Assembly: GCA_043820025.1 (NCBI GenBank)
Contig: JBDRED010000019.1
Location: forward strand, 1-24,661
Direction of reading: 5' to 3'
DNA from: JBDRED01 sp043820025 [NCBI: Elusimicrobiota bacterium]
Lineage (GTDB): Bacteria; RUG730; JBDRED01
DNA: 24,661 nt
Shown: positions 16,035 to 24,652 of the stretch, in pieces
Layout of the letters: the number at the start of each line of letters is the position of its first letter
How positions within the stretch are numbered: the first letter of the stretch is position 1
Notes under the pieces: model-generated
The model's input: only the letters and a program-made list of their open reading frames with translations
Told to the model about the DNA's origin: nothing
The model's database searches: none
Position numbers and translations under genes: made by a program

Positions 16035-17342
16035 ATGTATATTAAACGCAATAAACTAGCCTACTTAAAAAAAACAATAGCAAAAGAACCTGCGATAATA
16101 CTCATTGGGACAAGACAGGTTGGCAAAACAACATTAATGAAAAAACTGGAACAAGACTTAAAAAATGAAGAACAAAACACATTTTTTTTCAATCTTGAGC
16201 TTCCTTCTGCATTAAACATATTTTCTTCCGGGGTTGAATCATTTGTAGAATATTTAAAAATTCATGAAAATAAAAAGAATGCAAATAACGCTTTTATCTA
16301 TATTTTTATAGATGAATTTCAATACATTCCAAAGGCCGGTAAATTTTTTAAAGCATTAATAGATAATTATCCTCAGTTTAAAATTGTAGCTTCCGGATCA
16401 TCGTCAATTGAAATTCAACAATCACTTCAAGAATCATTAGTTGGAAGAAAGAGAATTATTAAAATATTTCCATTAGATTTTCATGAGTTTTTAAATTTTC
16501 GCAATTTAAAAGAAGCTGATTATTATGAAGATATTGATATTCAAAAACCTATACCAAAAAATATTTGCGAAATATTCAACAATGAATTCAGTGAATTTGT
16601 TATATGGGGCGGCATGCCAAAAACAATTCTAGAAAACGATTTTGAAGAACGAAAATATTTATTAGAAGAAATCTGCAGTTCCTATCTGCAAAAAGATATA
16701 AAAGGCCTCTTGGGGGCTGAAAATCTCGGTAATTTTAATAAACTTATGATATTATTATCTCAAGAAAGCAGTACAATATTAAGCACGCATTCATTATCAA
16801 ATGATTTGAATATAAAAAGAAGCAATTTAGAAAATCACCTTTTTATTCTGGAAAATACGTTCGTAAATTTTCAGATAGCGCCCTTTTTCAAAAACAAAAG
16901 AAAAGAATTATCAAAGTCAAAAAAAACTATCTTCTACGACACCGGAATAAGAAATAATTTAATAAAAGATTTTTCTAGTCTCGAATCAAGAATAGATAAG
17001 GGCATTCTAATAGAAACTGCTGTGTTTAATGAAATTATAAAGAATATGCATCCTGCTATGGAAATATATTATTGGCGCACGCAACATCAAACAGAAATTG
17101 ATATTATCATAAAACACAACAACGCTTTAATTCCCATTGAAATAAAATTCGGAGATAAAGACAATATCCCCCCATCTCTTCTATCATTCGCAGGCGAATA
17201 TAAGAGCCCCTTTGTTATAGTTATAAATAAAAGCACTTGGAAGGAATTGAATATAAAAGGAACGAGAGTATTTTTCGTGCCCGCATTTTTATCAAGTTAT
17301 ATTCCTTCTTTTATTTCAGATATCACAACGTCTTTAGTTTGA
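16035..17342 (+). CDS. AAA+ ATPase with DUF4143-type C-terminus (copy 1)
   Basis: A 435-residue predicted cytoplasmic ATPase. Walker A GTRQVGKT is at 25-32 and Walker B ending in Asp93-Glu94 (IYIFIDEFQ). The sensor-like segment FKIVASGSSSIEIQQSLQES and the GRKRIIKIFPLDFHEFL strand are typical of the family. The C-terminal half has the DUF4143 pattern FYDTGIRNNLI, GILIETAVFNEI and a nuclease-like strand set TEIDIII and IPIEIKFGD (Asp, ExK). The family is common in anaerobes and candidate phyla, often in variable regions, and its role is unknown. AAAGGAG before the ATG is a strong ribosome site. GCGC-type codons are few compared with the housekeeping genes, which fits acquisition. It is only distantly similar to the second ATPase. 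Confidence 0.88.
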   Translation: MYIKRNKLAYLKKTIAKEPAIILIGTRQVGKTTLMKKLEQDLKNEEQNTFFFNLELPSALNIFSSGVESFVEYLKIHENKKNANNAFIYIFIDEFQYIPKAGKFFKALIDNYPQFKIVASGSSSIEIQQSLQESLVGRKRIIKIFPLDFHEFLNFRNLKEADYYEDIDIQKPIPKNICEIFNNEFSEFVIWGGMPKTILENDFEERKYLLEEICSSYLQKDIKGLLGAENLGNFNKLMILLSQESSTILSTHSLSNDLNIKRSNLENHLFILENTFVNFQIAPFFKNKRKELSKSKKTIFYDTGIRNNLIKDFSSLESRIDKGILIETAVFNEIIKNMHPAMEIYYWRTQHQTEIDIIIKHNNALIPIEIKFGDKDNIPPSLLSFAGEYKSPFVIVINKSTWKELNIKGTRVFFVPAFLSSYIPSFISDITTSLV

Positions 17343-17602: not shown

Positions 17603-18748
17603 TTATAAATTGGATATTGCTTCCAAGTGTTTAATTGATATAACTGTAATATTCTTATCAAGCTTATAGGTTTCTTCTCCTGGATATACAACCCAAAGAT
17701 GCTCTAATTTAAGATCGTTAAACGCGCTATGCATAGATTTTGTAATTTTAGGAGCATCCTGATATTTGCATTCAATGCCCCACCTTTTCCCTTTATCCTG
17801 CCAAAACAAATCTAATTCAGCGCCACCATGAGTATTCCAGAAGAAAACATCCTCATCGCTTTTCTTTATTGTCTTTATACAATTTTCAAGAGCAAAACCT
17901 TCCCACGAAGCCCCCAGCTTATTATAGGTATATAATTGATCCGGCGCTTTAATAGTATTTATCGCATGAAAAACACCCGAGTCTCTTAAATAAATTTTAG
18001 GCCTCTTAACCAATCTCTTACCTACATTTTCATACCATGGAAATAAAACCCGGATCATATATGTATCTTTTAAAATATCGATATAATGTCTTACTGTCAT
18101 ATCAGAAATCCCGAAAGACCTTCCAATTTCCGAATAGTTTATTATTTGTCCATGATAATGACTTAACATTATCCAAAATCGTCTTAAAGTATTTGCAGGG
18201 ATCCTTATTCCTAATTGAGGGATGTCTCGTTCTAAATATGTAGTTATATAGTTCTCTAACCATAAGGCCGCGGCTTCATCTGAATCAGCAAGATAAGCCC
18301 GAGGGAACCCGCCCCTTAACCAAAGCTTTTTTATGTTTGATGCTCCAATATCTCGTATACTAAGACCATCTAAATAATAATATCCGATTCTTCCGGCAAG
18401 AGACTCTGAACTTTTATTAACAAGCTCTTTTGAAGCGCTGCCTAAAATTAAATATTTTTGTTTTTTATTTGTATCAACCAGGTATCGTATTAAAGGAAAT
18501 AGATTTGGCAACCGTTGAATTTCATCTATAACTATTAATCCTTCTAAATCACCTAACGCAAGCTGCGGCTGTCCAAGCTTTTCTAAATCTCTTGGGTTTT
18601 CAAGATCAAAATAATAATCAGCTTTTATCTGTTTAGAAATAAAGGTCTTACCTGCCTGTCTTGGTCCTAAAATAGCAGTAATTGGAAATAATCCAATATA
18701 TTTTCTAATTTTTTCTATATCTTGTTTACGATCTATTATCTTTTTCAT
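17603..18748 (-). CDS. AAA+ ATPase with DUF4143-type C-terminus (copy 2)
   Basis: A 381-residue ATPase. Walker A GPRQAGKT is at 28-35 and Walker B GLIVIDEIQ with Asp75-Glu76. YLILGSASKELV, the SLAGRIGYYYLDGLS strand and the LRGGFPRAYL motif are characteristic. A central winged-helix-like part (INYSEIGRSFGISDMTVRHYIDIL) precedes the DUF4143 end with PKIYLRDSGVFHAI, GASWEGFALENCI and the nuclease-like AELDLFW and GIECKYQD. The ATG at 18748 is chosen over an in-frame TTG at 18763. A perfect TTGACA-16-TATAAT promoter ends 6 bases before this ATG and no ribosome site exists, so the mRNA is probably leaderless. The gene is bracketed by identical 23-bp repeats and appears to be an insertion. Function unknown. 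Confidence 0.9.
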   Translation of the reverse strand: MKKIIDRKQDIEKIRKYIGLFPITAILGPRQAGKTFISKQIKADYYFDLENPRDLEKLGQPQLALGDLEGLIVIDEIQRLPNLFPLIRYLVDTNKKQKYLILGSASKELVNKSSESLAGRIGYYYLDGLSIRDIGASNIKKLWLRGGFPRAYLADSDEAAALWLENYITTYLERDIPQLGIRIPANTLRRFWIMLSHYHGQIINYSEIGRSFGISDMTVRHYIDILKDTYMIRVLFPWYENVGKRLVKRPKIYLRDSGVFHAINTIKAPDQLYTYNKLGASWEGFALENCIKTIKKSDEDVFFWNTHGGAELDLFWQDKGKRWGIECKYQDAPKITKSMHSAFNDLKLEHLWVVYPGEETYKLDKNITVISIKHLEAISNL

Positions 18749-18754
18749 GATATA

Positions 18755-18782
18755 ATTATACAATTTATCATTGAAATGTCAA
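18755..18782 (-). promoter_or_regulatory. Consensus promoter of the second ATPase, leaderless
   Basis: On the minus strand TTGACA, 16 bases, TATAAT, then 6 bases to the ATG at 18748. The predicted transcription start coincides with the A of the ATG. Confidence 0.7.
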
Positions 18783-19834: not shown

Positions 19835-22800
19835 CTATCTTATCACCGCTATCTTGCCTTTTGATTTTTCGCTCTCATTATCTAGGTTAGTTATAATATA
19901 AATATATACTCCGCTCGCTATCCTTTGATTTGCGTTGTTCTCTGCCTTCCATTCAAATTTCCCGTCACCATCTTCTTCATAGCCTTCATAAACCAGCTCT
20001 CCAGCGATTGTATATATTCGAATCTTTGCTCTTTTTGTGAGCTTATCGAATAACACACCGCCCTCTCTATCATAATCGCCGCCTGTTCCGGGCTTATATG
20101 GATTTGGATATACTATTGCTTTACTTAAATCATTTTCTGCGCCTGGAGCGCCAAACACGGTGTACACTGAAAAATGACTTAACGCTAATGTAATTGTGTT
20201 CTGCTCCTCATCAACTATGCCGCCTTGAAGAATCCATTCCTCTAAATTCTCGTCCAATAAATAAACATTTAAGTTTTTTTCATAAATATCTGTATTATCC
20301 ACAACCCCATCCTGATTTTCGTCTAAGTATGGAATGGTTATTGTTACTGGGAATAAAAATTCTTGATTTAATCTTTCGCCATTTAACTTATACATATTCA
20401 GCTCAATAGCTATTGACCCTTTTTGAATATCTCCTGCTTCTATTATCTTGTCCTCTGCTTGTTGAATCTTATCTACAGCTGCTTCGCTTGAAGAGATTAA
20501 AGGATTAATATTAATATCAATATATACCTCATCATTTGTTTGTATTGCTCCTGCGGGAATATTTATTATAATGTCTCTAGATTTCCCATCGAGCATTACC
20601 TGTTTAACCTGTTTTCCTCCTGTATTTGGATTGATTATTTTTTCATTTAATTCCGCTGTTGTGACTTGAGTAAATGCTGCGTTCATAGTTAAGATATTGT
20701 CTCCATTATATCCCCATACTTTAATCGAATATGCGGTGTTTGGGATTAGTCCTGTTAAACGGTATTCGTTTATCGTAGATTCATATGTATTTAAGACTGT
20801 ATCATTACTTGAAACTTCAATTTTATATTTTGAGCACCCATTGCCCTGCCATTCAATATCTGCTGTATGCGCTGAATAAGCTTTAATTTGTAAATCAGTC
20901 GGATCATTTGCCAGTGTGTATACGCTCATTAAAGCCGTTGTGGATGTTCCTGCAACATTGTAGCCCTCAAAATACCTTTCGTATGTAGTATTAGGGCTAA
21001 GGTTGTCTTCGATATAATAAACGAAATGATATTCTTTGATTTGATCATCTTTATCAACCACCCCATAATCAAACGAAATAATATTTGTGTCATCTGCTAT
21101 AAGATTGCCTTCACGATCAAAAATATTGTATTCGTCCTTCATTTCAGGATCCAGCCATCTCCATAGAATACTCCCGGTTGATACGGCTATACTGTCAAAG
21201 GTTCCATCCGTAGTATGCATTGTGCCATTCCTGTATGCAGAAAATCCCTGATTTTCTTGATCTCCGTTTAATGTCACATATGTATGCTTATTTGGAATAA
21301 AGCAATAATCGGAATTATAAGGCTGGACTATATATGAATATGAATAAGCTACAGGCCCCAATTCATAATATCCCTGCTCATTCGTTACTGTTTCCATACA
21401 GCTTAATGGATTTGGATCCCCTAGGTTCTCATAGATTAACGCTGATACAAGCACTCCTTCTATTGGGACATCTTCTTCATTCTTTATACAGCCGCTGATT
21501 ACATAGAGTTTTGGCGCTCCAATAAAATCCTGCGTCTGATCGCTATTTAATTCGCTGAAATAAACGCTTGGATAGTTAAATGCAGAAACATGTTCGTACA
21601 CAGGCGTTATTGTATAATCGCCTTTGATTAGATTTGTAAATTCATAATACCCCTCGCTGTTTGTAATACATAAAGCGTCAGCTGATCCTGACAGGGTTAC
21701 AGTCGCTCCTTGTATAATATAATCAAGACTATCCTTTAAATGTCCGTTTATTGAATATGTTTTTTCTGCGCCAATAAAATCTTGGCCTATACACATTACA
21801 TGATGCGGCTTTGTTATTTTATATCGCGGCATCTTCACAAGACCATCCACAGTTTCTTCCATCCAATAATCTTTTGCTTCCCAATCTATTTCAGAAGGAG
21901 TGAATTCTATAACATAGTTTCCTGATGATATTACAATAGAATTAAAAAATTGTGCCCAGACAGGCATTCCGCCGGTCTGCTGATCGTATAATTTTATCTG
22001 AATGTCTCTGGTTCCTATTACAGGATAGCCATACTCACTCAGCCATCCAACGCACCGCACACTGTCTGCGCCAATTGGCTCTTCATTAAATAAGGAATAT
22101 CCTCTTACGTCAGGCGAGAAATTGTAGTCTTCGTTTTCAATGTAAAAAGAAACTGCTCCGCTTTCAGTATTTAATAATTCATAATAACCGTCTTCATCAT
22201 ATTCAAAAATGCTTGGATACTTAGTAAACATACCTGATACTTTTATGGTTGATCCTGTTATCGCATAATTCGAAGCATCCTTAATATGCCCGAAAAAACT
22301 TACTGTAGGCCTTGCTCCAATAAAATCTTGATTCGTTTGATCAGCGCTTAAGCCGATATATGTTTTACTGCTTATTTCAAATCTATAATTATCTCGTTTA
22401 ACCTCTATAATATAATCTCCCTGCGCTAATCCTTTGAATTCATAATATCCGTTACTCGCAGTTAAATAGGCTTCTGTTACCCCGCCGGACAATGTAACCG
22501 TAGAATTTTCAATACCCTCGCCATCTGCATTCTTAACATATCCGCTTAATCTTACTTTTGACATGTCTCTAAACTTTTGAACTCTATTGCTTACACTATC
22601 TAATACATATGCACTGTCTATATTATCTACCCCAACTTTTGTAATATAATCAAACTCGCTTTCTCCTGTGCCGCTAGTCCCCCATTTTGTAAGAAAATTA
22701 CCATTTTTATCAAATACTTGGACCCTATCATTATTGCTATCTGCCACATATATTTTATCCGCACTATCAATTGAAAGGCCTTTAGCATAATTTATATCCC

Positions 22801-23464
22801 CATCCTCACTTCCATAGTCTCCCCATTCTTTGATAAATACTCCTATTGAATTGTATTTTTTTATTATGCAATTTTGTAAGAGATAAAGATTCCCTTCGCT
22901 ATCTGCATCAATACATGATACAGGATTGGATGTAGCAGTTCCCCCTGTATTCCAAAACTCCGATAATAAATCCCCGTCTAAATTAAAACTTTGGATTTTT
23001 CCATTATTATAATCAGCAACATATATAAGTCCCGCATTATTTATTGTTATTGAATACCCGCTGCTGCTCCATTTTCCGAGAAAATCGCCATCTGAATTAA
23101 ACTTTTGAACTCTATAATTTTTAGTATCAACCACATACACATTTCCTGTATTGTCTATTGCTATTCCAACAGGAAAATCAAACTCTCCGTCTCCCGCCCC
23201 GCAAGAACCCCATTTTTTTATAAATGTTCCATTGCTACTAAATTTTTGTATTCTATTATTATTACTGTCTGCTACATATATATACTCATCGCTGTCAATT
23301 GCTATTCCTCTAGGATTATTGAACTCTCCCTCTTCGATGCCAGAATTCCCCCATGTAGTTTCAAATTCGTATGTTTCTGCATGCAATTGGGAATAGAATA
23401 TTATGCTTAATAACACGCTCAATATCAGCATTACTTTATTTATTAATCTTGTTTGTATTTTCAT
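19835..23464 (-). CDS. Large secreted multidomain protein: NHL propeller, carboxypeptidase-regulatory repeats, Fn3, FlgD/T9SS-type tail
   Basis: A 1209-residue protein. Signal peptide at about 1-28. Residues about 30-305 carry six NHL-type repeats (for example GIAIDSDEYIYVADSNNNRIQKF), forming a propeller. About five carboxypeptidase-regulatory-like beta-sandwich units follow (GYVKNADGEGIENSTVTLSG, GYYEFKGLAQGDYIIEV). At about 470-550 they are interrupted by the GTRDIxIxLYD...PRxKI module shared with the fibre-like protein. A fibronectin III-like unit near 865-950 (TADIEWQG, YRLTGLIPNTAYSIKVWGY) comes next, then a beta-rich domain. The last about 85 residues (YPNPYKPGTGG to GKIAVIR) are a FlgD-Ig/T9SS type A-like sorting domain. 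The start at 23464 has GGGAG 6 bases upstream; the ATG at 23470 directly abuts that site. Likely an extracellular or surface adhesin or binding protein. Confidence 0.88.
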   Translation of the reverse strand: MKIQTRLINKVMLILSVLLSIIFYSQLHAETYEFETTWGNSGIEEGEFNNPRGIAIDSDEYIYVADSNNNRIQKFSSNGTFIKKWGSCGAGDGEFDFPVGIAIDNTGNVYVVDTKNYRVQKFNSDGDFLGKWSSSGYSITINNAGLIYVADYNNGKIQSFNLDGDLLSEFWNTGGTATSNPVSCIDADSEGNLYLLQNCIIKKYNSIGVFIKEWGDYGSEDGDINYAKGLSIDSADKIYVADSNNDRVQVFDKNGNFLTKWGTSGTGESEFDYITKVGVDNIDSAYVLDSVSNRVQKFRDMSKVRLSGYVKNADGEGIENSTVTLSGGVTEAYLTASNGYYEFKGLAQGDYIIEVKRDNYRFEISSKTYIGLSADQTNQDFIGARPTVSFFGHIKDASNYAITGSTIKVSGMFTKYPSIFEYDEDGYYELLNTESGAVSFYIENEDYNFSPDVRGYSLFNEEPIGADSVRCVGWLSEYGYPVIGTRDIQIKLYDQQTGGMPVWAQFFNSIVISSGNYVIEFTPSEIDWEAKDYWMEETVDGLVKMPRYKITKPHHVMCIGQDFIGAEKTYSINGHLKDSLDYIIQGATVTLSGSADALCITNSEGYYEFTNLIKGDYTITPVYEHVSAFNYPSVYFSELNSDQTQDFIGAPKLYVISGCIKNEEDVPIEGVLVSALIYENLGDPNPLSCMETVTNEQGYYELGPVAYSYSYIVQPYNSDYCFIPNKHTYVTLNGDQENQGFSAYRNGTMHTTDGTFDSIAVSTGSILWRWLDPEMKDEYNIFDREGNLIADDTNIISFDYGVVDKDDQIKEYHFVYYIEDNLSPNTTYERYFEGYNVAGTSTTALMSVYTLANDPTDLQIKAYSAHTADIEWQGNGCSKYKIEVSSNDTVLNTYESTINEYRLTGLIPNTAYSIKVWGYNGDNILTMNAAFTQVTTAELNEKIINPNTGGKQVKQVMLDGKSRDIIINIPAGAIQTNDEVYIDININPLISSSEAAVDKIQQAEDKIIEAGDIQKGSIAIELNMYKLNGERLNQEFLFPVTITIPYLDENQDGVVDNTDIYEKNLNVYLLDENLEEWILQGGIVDEEQNTITLALSHFSVYTVFGAPGAENDLSKAIVYPNPYKPGTGGDYDREGGVLFDKLTKRAKIRIYTIAGELVYEGYEEDGDGKFEWKAENNANQRIASGVYIYIITNLDNESEKSKGKIAVIR

Positions 23465-23602
23465 AACCATCTCCCGGGAATAATTATTTTATACTCCTTT
23501 ATCTAAACGTATTATGCGAAATAATTTTGATTTTTTACGCTTGTATTGATTAGACAGATGCTAATATAAAATGTTCCTGTTTATGTTTGCGAATTTACGA
23601 AT

Positions 23603-23628
23603 TTAGGGACGTTGTTCAAATTGTTCAA
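23603..23628 (+). repeat. Left 26-bp terminal inverted repeat of the transposase unit
   Basis: Exact inverse complement of 24627-24652. It begins TTAGGGACG and contains a tandem TTGTTCAAA/TTGTTCAA. The promoter of the transposase starts 9 bases inside it. Confidence 0.9.
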
Positions 23629-23636
23629 TTTTCTTG

Positions 23637-23664
23637 TTGTAATTGCGTAAAATATTTATATAAT
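23637..23664 (+). promoter_or_regulatory. Promoter of the transposase, probably leaderless
   Basis: TTGTAA, 16 bases, TATAAT at 23659-23664, then 6 bases to the ATG at 23671. No ribosome site is present. The geometry is the same as for the second ATPase. Confidence 0.55.
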
Positions 23665-23670
23665 ATTTTT

Positions 23671-24630
23671 ATGCCTAGACAACCTAGAATAGATCATCCT
23701 GGAATGTTGTATCATGTAATAGGCAGAGGTTTAGAACAAAAGAAAATCTTTGCGAACAACACTCTAAAACAAGAATTCTATAAACGCTTTTCTAATATAT
23801 TATCTAAGAGTAGTATACAATGTTATGCTTGGTGCATAATGGACAATCACTTTCATTTTTTAATCCAAACAGGCACTACAAAATTATCACATTTTATGAG
23901 TAGATTATTGACAGGATATGCTATCTACTATAATAAAAAACACAAGCGCAGAGGCCATTTATTTGAGAATAGATATAAATCGATACTCTGTGAAAAAGAT
24001 AAGTATTTGTTTTCTCTAGTTAGATATATTCATTTAAACCCTGTAAAAGCTAAGATTATTTCGTATGAAACATTGAAAGACTATTTATGGACAGGACACC
24101 ATGAATTTTTCACAACACAAAAGGGAATTGTTAATAAAGATGATTTATTAGAGCATTTTGGAGATAGTAGAAAAAAAGCATTAAAACAATACAAACAATA
24201 TATTTTAGACGGGCTTAATCTGGAAGAGAATTTTGACAAAATCACCAAAAATTTAGAGAATAATCAAGAAAATGTGTTATTTGACAATCGCATATTAGGA
24301 AGAGCTGACTTTGTTCAAAGTATAGTTAATAAAATAGAAAATAATGAAAACATAGCGCTAAGAAAAATGACATTACAGGATTTGGAAAATTGTATTAAGA
24401 ATTACTATAATATAGATAAAAAAATGCTGTTTAAAAATATGGATAGAAAATTAAAAGATTATCGTACTCTTTATATCTATCTTGGAAATACTTATCTCGG
24501 GAAATCGCTAACAGATATAGGGCTAAGTATTAACTTAAATAGATCCTCTGTTAGTATGATAATGACTAGATGTCTAAATGATGATAAAATTTTAAAGATG
24601 GCGGATAAAGTGATAAAAGCTATTTTTTGA
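23671..24630 (+). CDS. Y1-type (REP-associated) transposase with DnaA domain IV-like C-terminus
   Basis: A 319-residue HUH single-strand transposase. The HUH motif is His60-Phe61-His62 in MDNHFHFLIQ. The tyrosine candidates lie in LLTGYAIYYNKKH (Tyr83 is the likeliest), followed by RRGHLFENRYKSI and RYIHLNPVKAKI, all hallmarks of the TnpA-REP branch of Y1 transposases. Residues about 225-319 (MTLQDLENCIKNYYNI, RTLYIYLGNTYLG, LTDIGLSINLNRSSVSMIM) resemble the DNA-binding domain IV of DnaA. The ATG at 23671 gives the usual N-terminus MPRQPRIDHPG; an in-frame TTG at 23587 would run through the left repeat and is rejected. The stop codon lies inside the right inverted repeat. Few GCGC codons, consistent with a mobile gene. 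Confidence 0.92.
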   Translation: MPRQPRIDHPGMLYHVIGRGLEQKKIFANNTLKQEFYKRFSNILSKSSIQCYAWCIMDNHFHFLIQTGTTKLSHFMSRLLTGYAIYYNKKHKRRGHLFENRYKSILCEKDKYLFSLVRYIHLNPVKAKIISYETLKDYLWTGHHEFFTTQKGIVNKDDLLEHFGDSRKKALKQYKQYILDGLNLEENFDKITKNLENNQENVLFDNRILGRADFVQSIVNKIENNENIALRKMTLQDLENCIKNYYNIDKKMLFKNMDRKLKDYRTLYIYLGNTYLGKSLTDIGLSINLNRSSVSMIMTRCLNDDKILKMADKVIKAIF

Positions 24631-24652
24631 ACAATTTGAACAACGTCCCTAA
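24627..24652 (-). repeat. Right 26-bp terminal inverted repeat of the transposase unit
   Basis: Exact inverse complement of 23603-23628. Its inner edge contains the TGA stop codon of the transposase (24628-24630). Confidence 0.9.

What the first reader, a model, noticed from the sequence alone, without database searches (positions are those of the whole stretch)
23603..24652. Y1 HUH transposase enclosed by perfect 26-bp inverted repeats, stop codon inside the repeat
Seen directly: the two 26-mers are exact inverse complements, carry an internal tandem TTGTTCAA repeat, and the right copy contains the stop codon. HUH Y1 transposases of the IS200/IS605 type do not normally use long terminal inverted repeats; REP-associated ones recognise dispersed hairpins. 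A single gene with its own promoter between such ends suggests a minimal, possibly currently mobile unit, or a REP-like system in which the 26-mer is the recognised sequence.
Basis: partly seen in the sequence, partly recalled or inferred. Interest (0 to 1): 0.6.

Follow-up and report, generated by a model that had tools for sequence, protein, structure and literature searches.

The report
Self-flanked Y1 transposon with stuttered ends
The window holds a small mobile element, one tyrosine (HUH) transposase gene between two matching inverted ends, of a known but little-studied kind; comparing a hundred relatives suggests that the enzyme nicks the DNA about ten bases outside the ends and leaves tandem copies there.

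Summary
In detail: a 319-aa Y1 (HUH) transposase gene lies between exact inverted 26-mers, with its stop codon inside the right one. It is neither a typical IS200/IS605 nor a GTAG-REP system; it fits a described kind, the TIRtron/TIRYT (Di Nocera 2013; subclass 2.1 of Quentin 2018). Of 120 distinct homologues (117 from Omnitrophota), 95 have flanking inverted repeats; in 80 both arms share an outer GG[G/T][A/T]C (GGG in 79) plus an inner part private to each element. Near-identical copies in different surroundings end at that motif, so the repeats are the ends of a mobile unit. In long (mostly HTH-bearing) members the inner arm tends to hold two tandem 7-9-bp boxes.

New here: 37 of 200 element ends, the window's left end included, carry an exact tandem duplication at the end/host junction (1-3 at control points). 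Its outer breakpoint is nearly fixed, about 10 nt outside GGG; the inner one varies, 700-920 nt inside in three cases. No excess microhomology. I infer that the transposase nicks about 10 nt outside its end, the 3'-OH is extended, and the tyrosine-held strand is rejoined: testable, unproven, sequence evidence only.

The parts
23590..23605 (+). tandem duplication CGAATTTA x2 abutting the GGG of the left end (junction duplication)
   Evidence: sequence; flagged by the scan, period 8, -16 to 0 from GGG
23603..23628 (+). left inverted repeat, 26 nt; family core GGGACGTTGTTCAAATTGTTCAA = 23606-23628
   Evidence: family comparison
23606..23610 (+). outer motif GGGAC, in the family GGG[A/T]C
   Evidence: GG[GT][AT]C was the anchor, found at matching places in both arms of 80 of 120 elements
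23612..23619 (+). inner box 1, TTGTTCAA
   Evidence: sequence; tandem boxes of period 7-8 in the long class
23621..23628 (+). inner box 2, TTGTTCAA
   Evidence: as above
23637..23664 (+). promoter-like TTGTAA-16-TATAAT just inside the left arm
   Evidence: consensus match only; TTGAC just inside the left arm in 33 of 61 and inside the right arm in 0 of 61 long elements of the first set
23671..24630 (+). Y1 HUH transposase gene, 319 aa, with a DnaA-C/HTH-like C-terminal domain
23848..23856 (+). HUH motif codons H60-F61-H62
   Evidence: invariant H60 and H62
24025..24027 (+). codon of the presumed catalytic tyrosine Y119 (YIHLNP)
   Evidence: Y[IV]HLNP is a subclass 2.1 motif
24627..24652 (-). 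right inverted repeat, 26 nt, containing the TGA stop 24628-24630
   Evidence: stop codon inside the arm in 55 of 61 long elements of the first set

Best explanation
The window holds one TIRtron: a 1,044-bp unit (23606-24649) made of a single Y1 HUH transposase gene between terminal inverted repeats. Shown by comparison: the repeats are the ends of the mobile unit; in two thirds of the homologues examined both arms carry the same outer GGG[A/T]C-type motif, and the inner part is private to each element but matched between its two arms; in the long class the inner part tends to be two tandem boxes, and the right arm usually supplies the stop codon. Inferred: the HUH domain reads the outer motif and the C-terminal HTH the inner boxes, and since the left arm abuts a likely promoter, binding may also repress the gene; the enzyme nicks one strand about 7-13 nt outside GGG[A/T]C and stays bound to the 5' end by its tyrosine, the free 3'-OH is extended by a polymerase into the element, and strand transfer of that 3'-OH to the tyrosine-held 5' end leaves a tandem duplication that starts at the nick. 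How the whole element moves is not known.
For: Inverted repeats round 95 of 120 distinct homologues (score >=13; 3.5% of 953 mismatched pairs). Copies with unrelated flanks end at GGG: L115/L125 95% identical in one genome, L048/L082 98% in one genome, L024/L025 80% in two genomes, ends within 3 nt. Arms of one element are 92-100% alike over the first 15 positions; arms of different elements 33-77% at positions 3 and 5-14, the others being fixed by the anchor (61 long elements). Inner-arm period 7 and 8 (z 8.4, 7.0 in 61 long elements of the first set; z 8.8 at 7 but 0.6 at 8 in 39 of the second set; none in 19 short ones); box 1 resembles box 2 of its own element more than of others (4.90 against 3.74 of 7, p 0.0002). 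Outer-arm distance follows the Y1 domain (partial r 0.62, p 0.001) and not the C-terminal domain (-0.02, p 0.6), also in the second set (0.21, p 0.004; -0.07, p 0.85). Junction duplications: 37 of 200 ends; coverage of the outer 20 nt 19.7% in 122 first-set ends against 1.6% in other non-ORF DNA; 1 of 64 hairpin ends. Outer breakpoint mean -9.6, SD 2.9 (null SD 6.65, 0 of 5000); inner breakpoint as spread as chance; slack mean 0.73 nt. Same geometry in duplications of 836 bp x3, 931 bp x2 and 706 bp x2.
Against: No cleavage, binding or transposition was measured. No empty site was found. The link of inner arm to C-terminal domain holds in the first set (0.25, p 0.001) but not in the second (0.01, p 0.46), and in the first set the inner arm also follows the Y1 domain (0.20, p 0.002). 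I see by eye no base consensus at the outer breakpoint, whereas TnpA_REP cuts at CT. Some related copies share flanks and are inherited in place (L136/L138; right flank of L034/L035). Short elements hardly show the duplications (2 of 38 ends). At least one extra outside motif is native host sequence, not a duplication (L125). The scan starts at period 7, so duplications of host DNA alone cannot start closer than about 7 nt; periods 4-6 were checked and are not enriched. 25 of 120 homologues gave no clear inverted repeat. The window's right flank is only 9 nt long.
Confidence: 0.7

Rival explanations
1. The tandem duplications are ordinary replication slippage at a pause caused by the inverted repeats folding back on each other; the transposase plays no part in them.
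For: They sit at the base of a potential long stem, and many inner breakpoints fall at the stem base or 5-6 nt into it (weights 10.5 and 10.4 of 37).
Against: By my reasoning slippage at a pause should fix the inner breakpoint and use microhomology; here the outer one is nearly fixed, the inner one is free up to about 900 nt, and slack is 0.73 nt. Local hairpins show 1 of 64. Short-class elements with the same inverted layout show 2 of 38. The control used local hairpins, not stems with arms 1 kb apart.
Confidence: 0.25
2. A REP-like, domesticated system: the gene stays put and the enzyme works on dispersed copies of the arm sequence.
For: tnpA_REP genes are mostly single copies with no evidence of mobility (PMC8266576, passages); G002 carries a clustered family of repeats that begins with an arm-like end.
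Against: Element copies with unrelated flanks end at the arms. GGGACGTTGTTNAA with 1 mismatch has only 6, 8 and 4 hits in three relatives, against 6, 10 and 0 for the reversed control pattern, so no REP-like excess. The window arms do not fold.
Confidence: 0.12
3. Target-site duplications or a different transposase (DDE type) explain ends and duplications.
For: Perfect inverted repeats are typical of DDE ISs (recalled).
Against: The only catalytic domain found is Y1 (window; ten relatives). The duplications lie side by side at one end rather than bracketing the element, and their period varies from 7 to 40 bp and up to 931 bp.
Confidence: 0.04

Closest known systems
TIRtron / TIRYT (Di Nocera et al. 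2013, PMC3733652; abstract, section 16 and passages read)
   Same: RAYT-like Y1 gene between long inverted repeats, several TIRs sharing a G-run motif (GGGGWSAS) at about the same distance from the gene.
   Different: The window motif is A-GGGACGTT, which fits GGGGWSAS only in part. Tandem inner boxes and junction duplications are not mentioned in the passages I read; overlap of the 3' repeat with the gene is (figure legends).
TnpA_Y1 subclass 2.1/2.1.2 (Quentin et al. 2018, PMC6006769; abstract, sections 11 and 12 and part 1 of 15 read)
   Same: NH[YF]H and Y[IV]HLNP motifs, C-terminal Bac_DnaA_C/HTH-like extension, no REP-like sequence found near the gene.
   Different: The paper left the role of the C-terminal domain open; here the inner arm carries tandem boxes in the long class, and their sequence tracks that domain in one of two sets.
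RAYT/TnpA_REP REPtrons (Nunvar 2010 PMC2817692; PMC8266576; passages read)
   Same: Y1 enzyme with Y--NP motif, gene between inverted end sequences that go with the enzyme.
   Different: REPs are mostly GTAG-tagged hairpins, usually in more than 100 copies per genome; here linear, unfolded arms with private cores.
Tandem REPIN clusters that include flanking DNA (Bertels & Rainey 2011, PMC3116915; passages read)
   Same: Tandem units made of an end structure plus adjacent host DNA; the authors infer a second mechanism for cluster formation.
   Different: Here they sit at transposon ends with a nearly fixed outer and a free inner breakpoint.
IS200/IS605
   Same: HUH Y1 fold family (Pfam Y1_Tnp).
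   Different: These lack terminal inverted repeats (PMC2817692) and use subterminal hairpins (PMC6006769).

Membership tests
TIRtron/TIRYT | Y1 HUH transposase with HUH and Y--NP motifs | tested here: met
   H60FH62, Y119IHLNP
TIRtron/TIRYT | long terminal inverted repeats flanking or overlapping the gene | tested here: met
   relatives
TIRtron/TIRYT | GGGGWSAS motif in the repeat (in some TIRs only, per the paper) | tested here: inconclusive
   window has AGGGACGTT; in the 61 long elements GGG[A/T]C is preceded by G in 79-80%
TnpA_Y1 subclass 2.1.2 | C-terminal Bac_DnaA_C/HTH domain | tested here: met
   PF08299 E 1.3e-4 but 22.4 bits, under the cut-off of 31.5, residues 239-295; also in 4 of 5 long (2 above cut-off) and 0 of 5 short relatives scanned
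TnpA_Y1 subclass 2.1.2 | place in the published phylogeny | not tested
   no tree was built with the published sequences
RAYT/REPtron | flanking GTAG-tagged hairpin REPs | tested here: not met
   arms lack GTAG and do not fold; NF047646 REP_Tyr_transpos 66.5 bits, under its cut-off of 80
RAYT/REPtron | many dispersed copies of the end sequence in the host genome | not testable with these tools
   own genome not held; no excess over control in three relatives
IS200/IS605 (class 1) | about 150 aa, Y---Q motif, no terminal inverted repeats | tested here: not met
   319 aa, YIHLNP, perfect inverted repeats; NF033573 16.9 bits, cut-off 55

The most novel reading that the evidence does not exclude
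TIRYT transposases are end-anchored DNA duplicators: they nick a fixed 7-13 nt outside their end, let a polymerase extend the 3'-OH a variable distance (a few to about 900 nt), then rejoin the tyrosine-held strand. This builds tandem copies of the end plus host DNA and could be the missing second mechanism behind tandem REPIN/BIME arrays. The end has two parts, an outer pentamer read by the HUH domain and inner tandem boxes read by the HTH.
Probability: 0.45. Interest if true: 0.75.

Novelty: new member of a known kind. Interest (0 to 1): 0.55.

Why it matters
TIRtrons were named in 2013 and their mechanism left open; of the 8 papers in the library that hold the string TIRYT, two are on the subject. 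If the duplications are the enzyme's footprint, genomes already record where it nicks and how it rejoins, which makes the biochemistry directly testable. It also offers a concrete route for tandem arrays of REP-like repeats, for which a second mechanism was inferred in 2011 but not named in the passages I read.

Tried and rejected
REP-like dispersal of the window's own 26-mer: core pattern in 368 genomes, 2 hits without an intact GGGACG. One exact 18-mer hit in viral contigs (L156) is a lone match, with no second arm in the 11.3 kb held and no significant homologue (best E 0.064), judged chance. A protein scan of viral contigs found no relative.

Structure: AlphaFold2 on a four-sequence alignment gave pLDDT 54.9, too poor for a fold search, so none was run.

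Empty sites: a genus search for G327 held one genome; family searches (9 genomes each) with the two G253 copies gave no clean empty site. In L125 the right flank matches the 3' part of a gene seen elsewhere, but the left flank does not match there.

Slippage at hairpins: tested with 64 local hairpin ends, 1 hit, itself GGGGTC-like. Periods 4-6 are not enriched (8 against 5-16).

Host: the window's ArgS is 42-49% identical to its match in each of 86 genomes out of 97 Omnitrophota searched, so the host's phylum stays open.

Rows dropped before counts; 8 running off the contig, 7 duplicates, 4 not reaching the N-terminus, 4 short or broken, 1 start off the contig; 6 with short flanks were kept; 5 off, 6 duplicates, 5 not reaching the N-terminus, 1 short, 1 short flank; from its 56 elements one search set aside three of L168-L171 (not of that phylum). 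Elements without a GG[GT][AT]C motif at matching places in both arms (40 of 120; 14 of 53) were left out of the end analyses. Of the places I had 30 as loci and fetched 80 more as regions; of those.

Full report
1. What is there. The gene, the two exact 26-mers and the stop codon inside the right one are as reported. The protein is a Y1 transposase with a weak DnaA-C-like HTH match at its C-terminus, HUH motif HFH and YIHLNP around the tyrosine. Chance is excluded: score 26 against a 99.9th percentile of 19.1 for mismatched flank pairs. The window's genome is not held.

2. The family. A scan of genome contigs gave four homologues; 218 of 384 Omnitrophota genomes searched have one at E <= 1e-20. 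From the loci and 80 further regions I took 120 distinct homologues: the window, 2 from G001 (a different phylum with 3 genomes held) and 117 from Omnitrophota; below, the first set. Flanking inverted repeats score >= 13 in 95 of 120, against 3.5% of 953 mismatched pairs. In 80 of 120 a GG[GT][AT]C motif (GGG in 79) sits at matching places in both arms: 61 of 81 long proteins (>= 280 aa) and 19 of 39 short ones. In 48 of the 61 the left GGG lies 50-71 nt before the ATG. The right arm overlaps the gene end: stop codon inside the arm in 55 of 61, and in 34 of 61 it is the TGA of TGACCC, the complement of GGGTCA; in the second set (below) 28 and 11 of 39. TTGAC lies just inside the left arm in 33 of 61 and inside the right in 0 of 61 (second set 12 and 1 of 39), so the left arm often abuts a likely promoter. 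This fits autoregulation (inference).

3. The repeats are the element's ends. Aligned copies in different places lose similarity at GGG: L115/L125 (two contigs of G253, 95%), L048/L082 (G279, 98%, 3.25 kb apart), L024/L025 (two genomes, 80%), within 3 nt. Other pairs share flanks too (L136/L138; right flank of L034/L035), so some copies are old and stay in place. The TnpA_REP paper states that there is no evidence of tnpA_REP mobility (PMC8266576, passages); for this TIR group the copies above are such evidence.

4. Anatomy of an arm. The inner part differs between elements but is matched between the two arms of one element. In the long class it tends to be two tandem boxes: autocorrelation at 7 and 8 nt (z 8.4, 7.0), absent in the 19 short elements, and seen again in an independent second set, from the phylum of G388, whose L004 is a Verrucomicrobiales record (period 7, z 8.8; period 8, z 0.6; 39 elements, being those of 53 with anchored arms). 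Boxes differ between elements yet match within one (4.90 against 3.74 of 7, p 0.0002; first set). Window: TTGTTCAA twice, 9 apart. Outer-arm differences follow the Y1 domain and not the C-terminal domain in both sets (first 0.62 and -0.02; second 0.21 and -0.07). Inner-arm differences follow the C-terminal domain in the first set (0.25, p 0.001; also the Y1 domain, 0.20) but not in the second (0.01, p 0.46). The HTH-reads-boxes idea is therefore only partly supported. Permutation tests of this kind do not fully remove shared ancestry.

5. Stuttered ends. In the first set an extra copy of the arm's own GGG[A/T]C in the same orientation lies within 30 nt outside 23 of 119 long-class arms with enough flank, against 16 of 933 farther windows (p 1.9e-13) and 2 of 119 in the opposite orientation. 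Of the 28 arms (both classes) with such a copy within 45 nt, 14 are exact tandem duplications of host flank plus the first part of the arm. In the 61 + 39 elements, 37 of 200 ends have an exact tandem duplication (periods 7-40) touching the junction; the same count at shifted points is 36 at offset 0 and 1-3 at five others. Coverage of the outer 20 nt is 19.7% (first set) against 1.6% in other non-ORF DNA and 0.3% in ORFs. The second set alone gives 12 of 78 ends. The window's left end is one: CGAATTTA twice, ending at GGG. Short class: 2 of 38.

6. Geometry. The outer breakpoint is nearly fixed: mean 9.6 nt outside GGG, SD 2.9; random placement of the same lengths gives SD 6.65, and 0 of 5000 trials were as tight. 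The inner breakpoint is as spread as chance (SD 6.5 against 6.6), with peaks at the two edges of GGG[A/T]C (positions 0-1 and 5-6, weights 10.5 and 10.4 of 37). Extra matched bases average 0.73, close to what I estimate for random joining (about 0.8, my arithmetic, no call), so no microhomology is needed. Three large tandem duplications, all in the second set's phylum, have the same kind of outer edge: 836 bp x3 in G528 (13 nt outside GGG), 931 bp x2 in G560 (11 nt; 930 bases matched, one extra base at the joint), 706 bp x2 in G536 (7-9 nt), running about 700-920 nt into the element. Nick, extension of the 3'-OH, and rejoining of the tyrosine-held 5' end would produce exactly this. HUH enzymes leave a 5'-tyrosine link and a 3'-OH that can prime synthesis or attack the link, and TnpA_REP cuts mainly close to its REP, on either side (PMC8266576, passages). 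That this happens here is inference.

7. Known or new. Long TIRs round RAYT-like genes are the TIRtrons of Di Nocera 2013; Quentin 2018 puts 20 of the 26 examples in subclass 2.1 and leaves the HTH's role open. Tandem REPIN clusters that include flanking DNA were reported in 2011, with a second mechanism inferred (PMC3116915, passages). I found no paper describing end-anchored duplications at TIR ends; searches: listings only, in a library that lacks most subscription journals. The window element is a new member of a known kind; the footprint and the mechanism read from it are the new part.

8. Limits. Everything is sequence comparison. The window ends 9 nt after the right arm. No empty site was obtained. 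A DDE-element control for the duplications was not run. Many of the genomes are in many contigs, so tandem copies rest on their assembly.

Noticed in passing
L006, L018, L020-L022, L254-L257, L259-L261 (genome G002): A repeat of about 100 bp or more beginning with an arm-like end (GGGACGTTGTTTGATAAATTGAT) occurs 7 times in three contigs, all on one strand, with matches starting 4-7 nt outside GGG and several different 3' ends. It could be one-ended dispersal.
   Followed up: partly
L208 (G528), L209 and L210 (G560), L219 (G536): Transposase genes or large parts of them amplified in tandem (836 bp x3, 931 bp x2, 706 bp x2) and a 99.8% identical pair 2.2 kb apart.
   Followed up: yes
L067, L068, L071, L090, L122, L139: Arms of short-class relatives contain local palindromes around GGGAC/GGGTC (for example AAATAG-GGACAGCGA-CTATTT), more REP-like than the long class; seen by eye in the list.
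   Followed up: no
L127, L136, L138, L140, L141: A class of about 196 aa has flanks with GGGAC-type motifs, several of them with more than one unit (for example GGGACGTGTC...GGGACACTC).
   Followed up: no
L164, right of the element: The right flank of the L125 copy matches the 3' end of a gene (HD-GYP-like by recall) that runs on upstream in G338 C10 and G253 C14; its native sequence contains GACCCC near the element end, a possible target preference.
   Followed up: partly
L075 right flank and G327:C28:17463-18388: The DNA from about 150 nt right of the L075 element recurs at 87% identity elsewhere in G327 without the element; not examined.
   Followed up: no
window 16035-17342 and 17603-18763: Two convergent ATPase-like ORFs (435 and 386 aa; they resemble DUF4143-type AAA proteins by recall).
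   Followed up: no
window 19835-23470: A 1211-aa ORF that looks like a beta-propeller (NHL-like, by recall) surface protein, next to the element and divergent from its gene.
   Followed up: no
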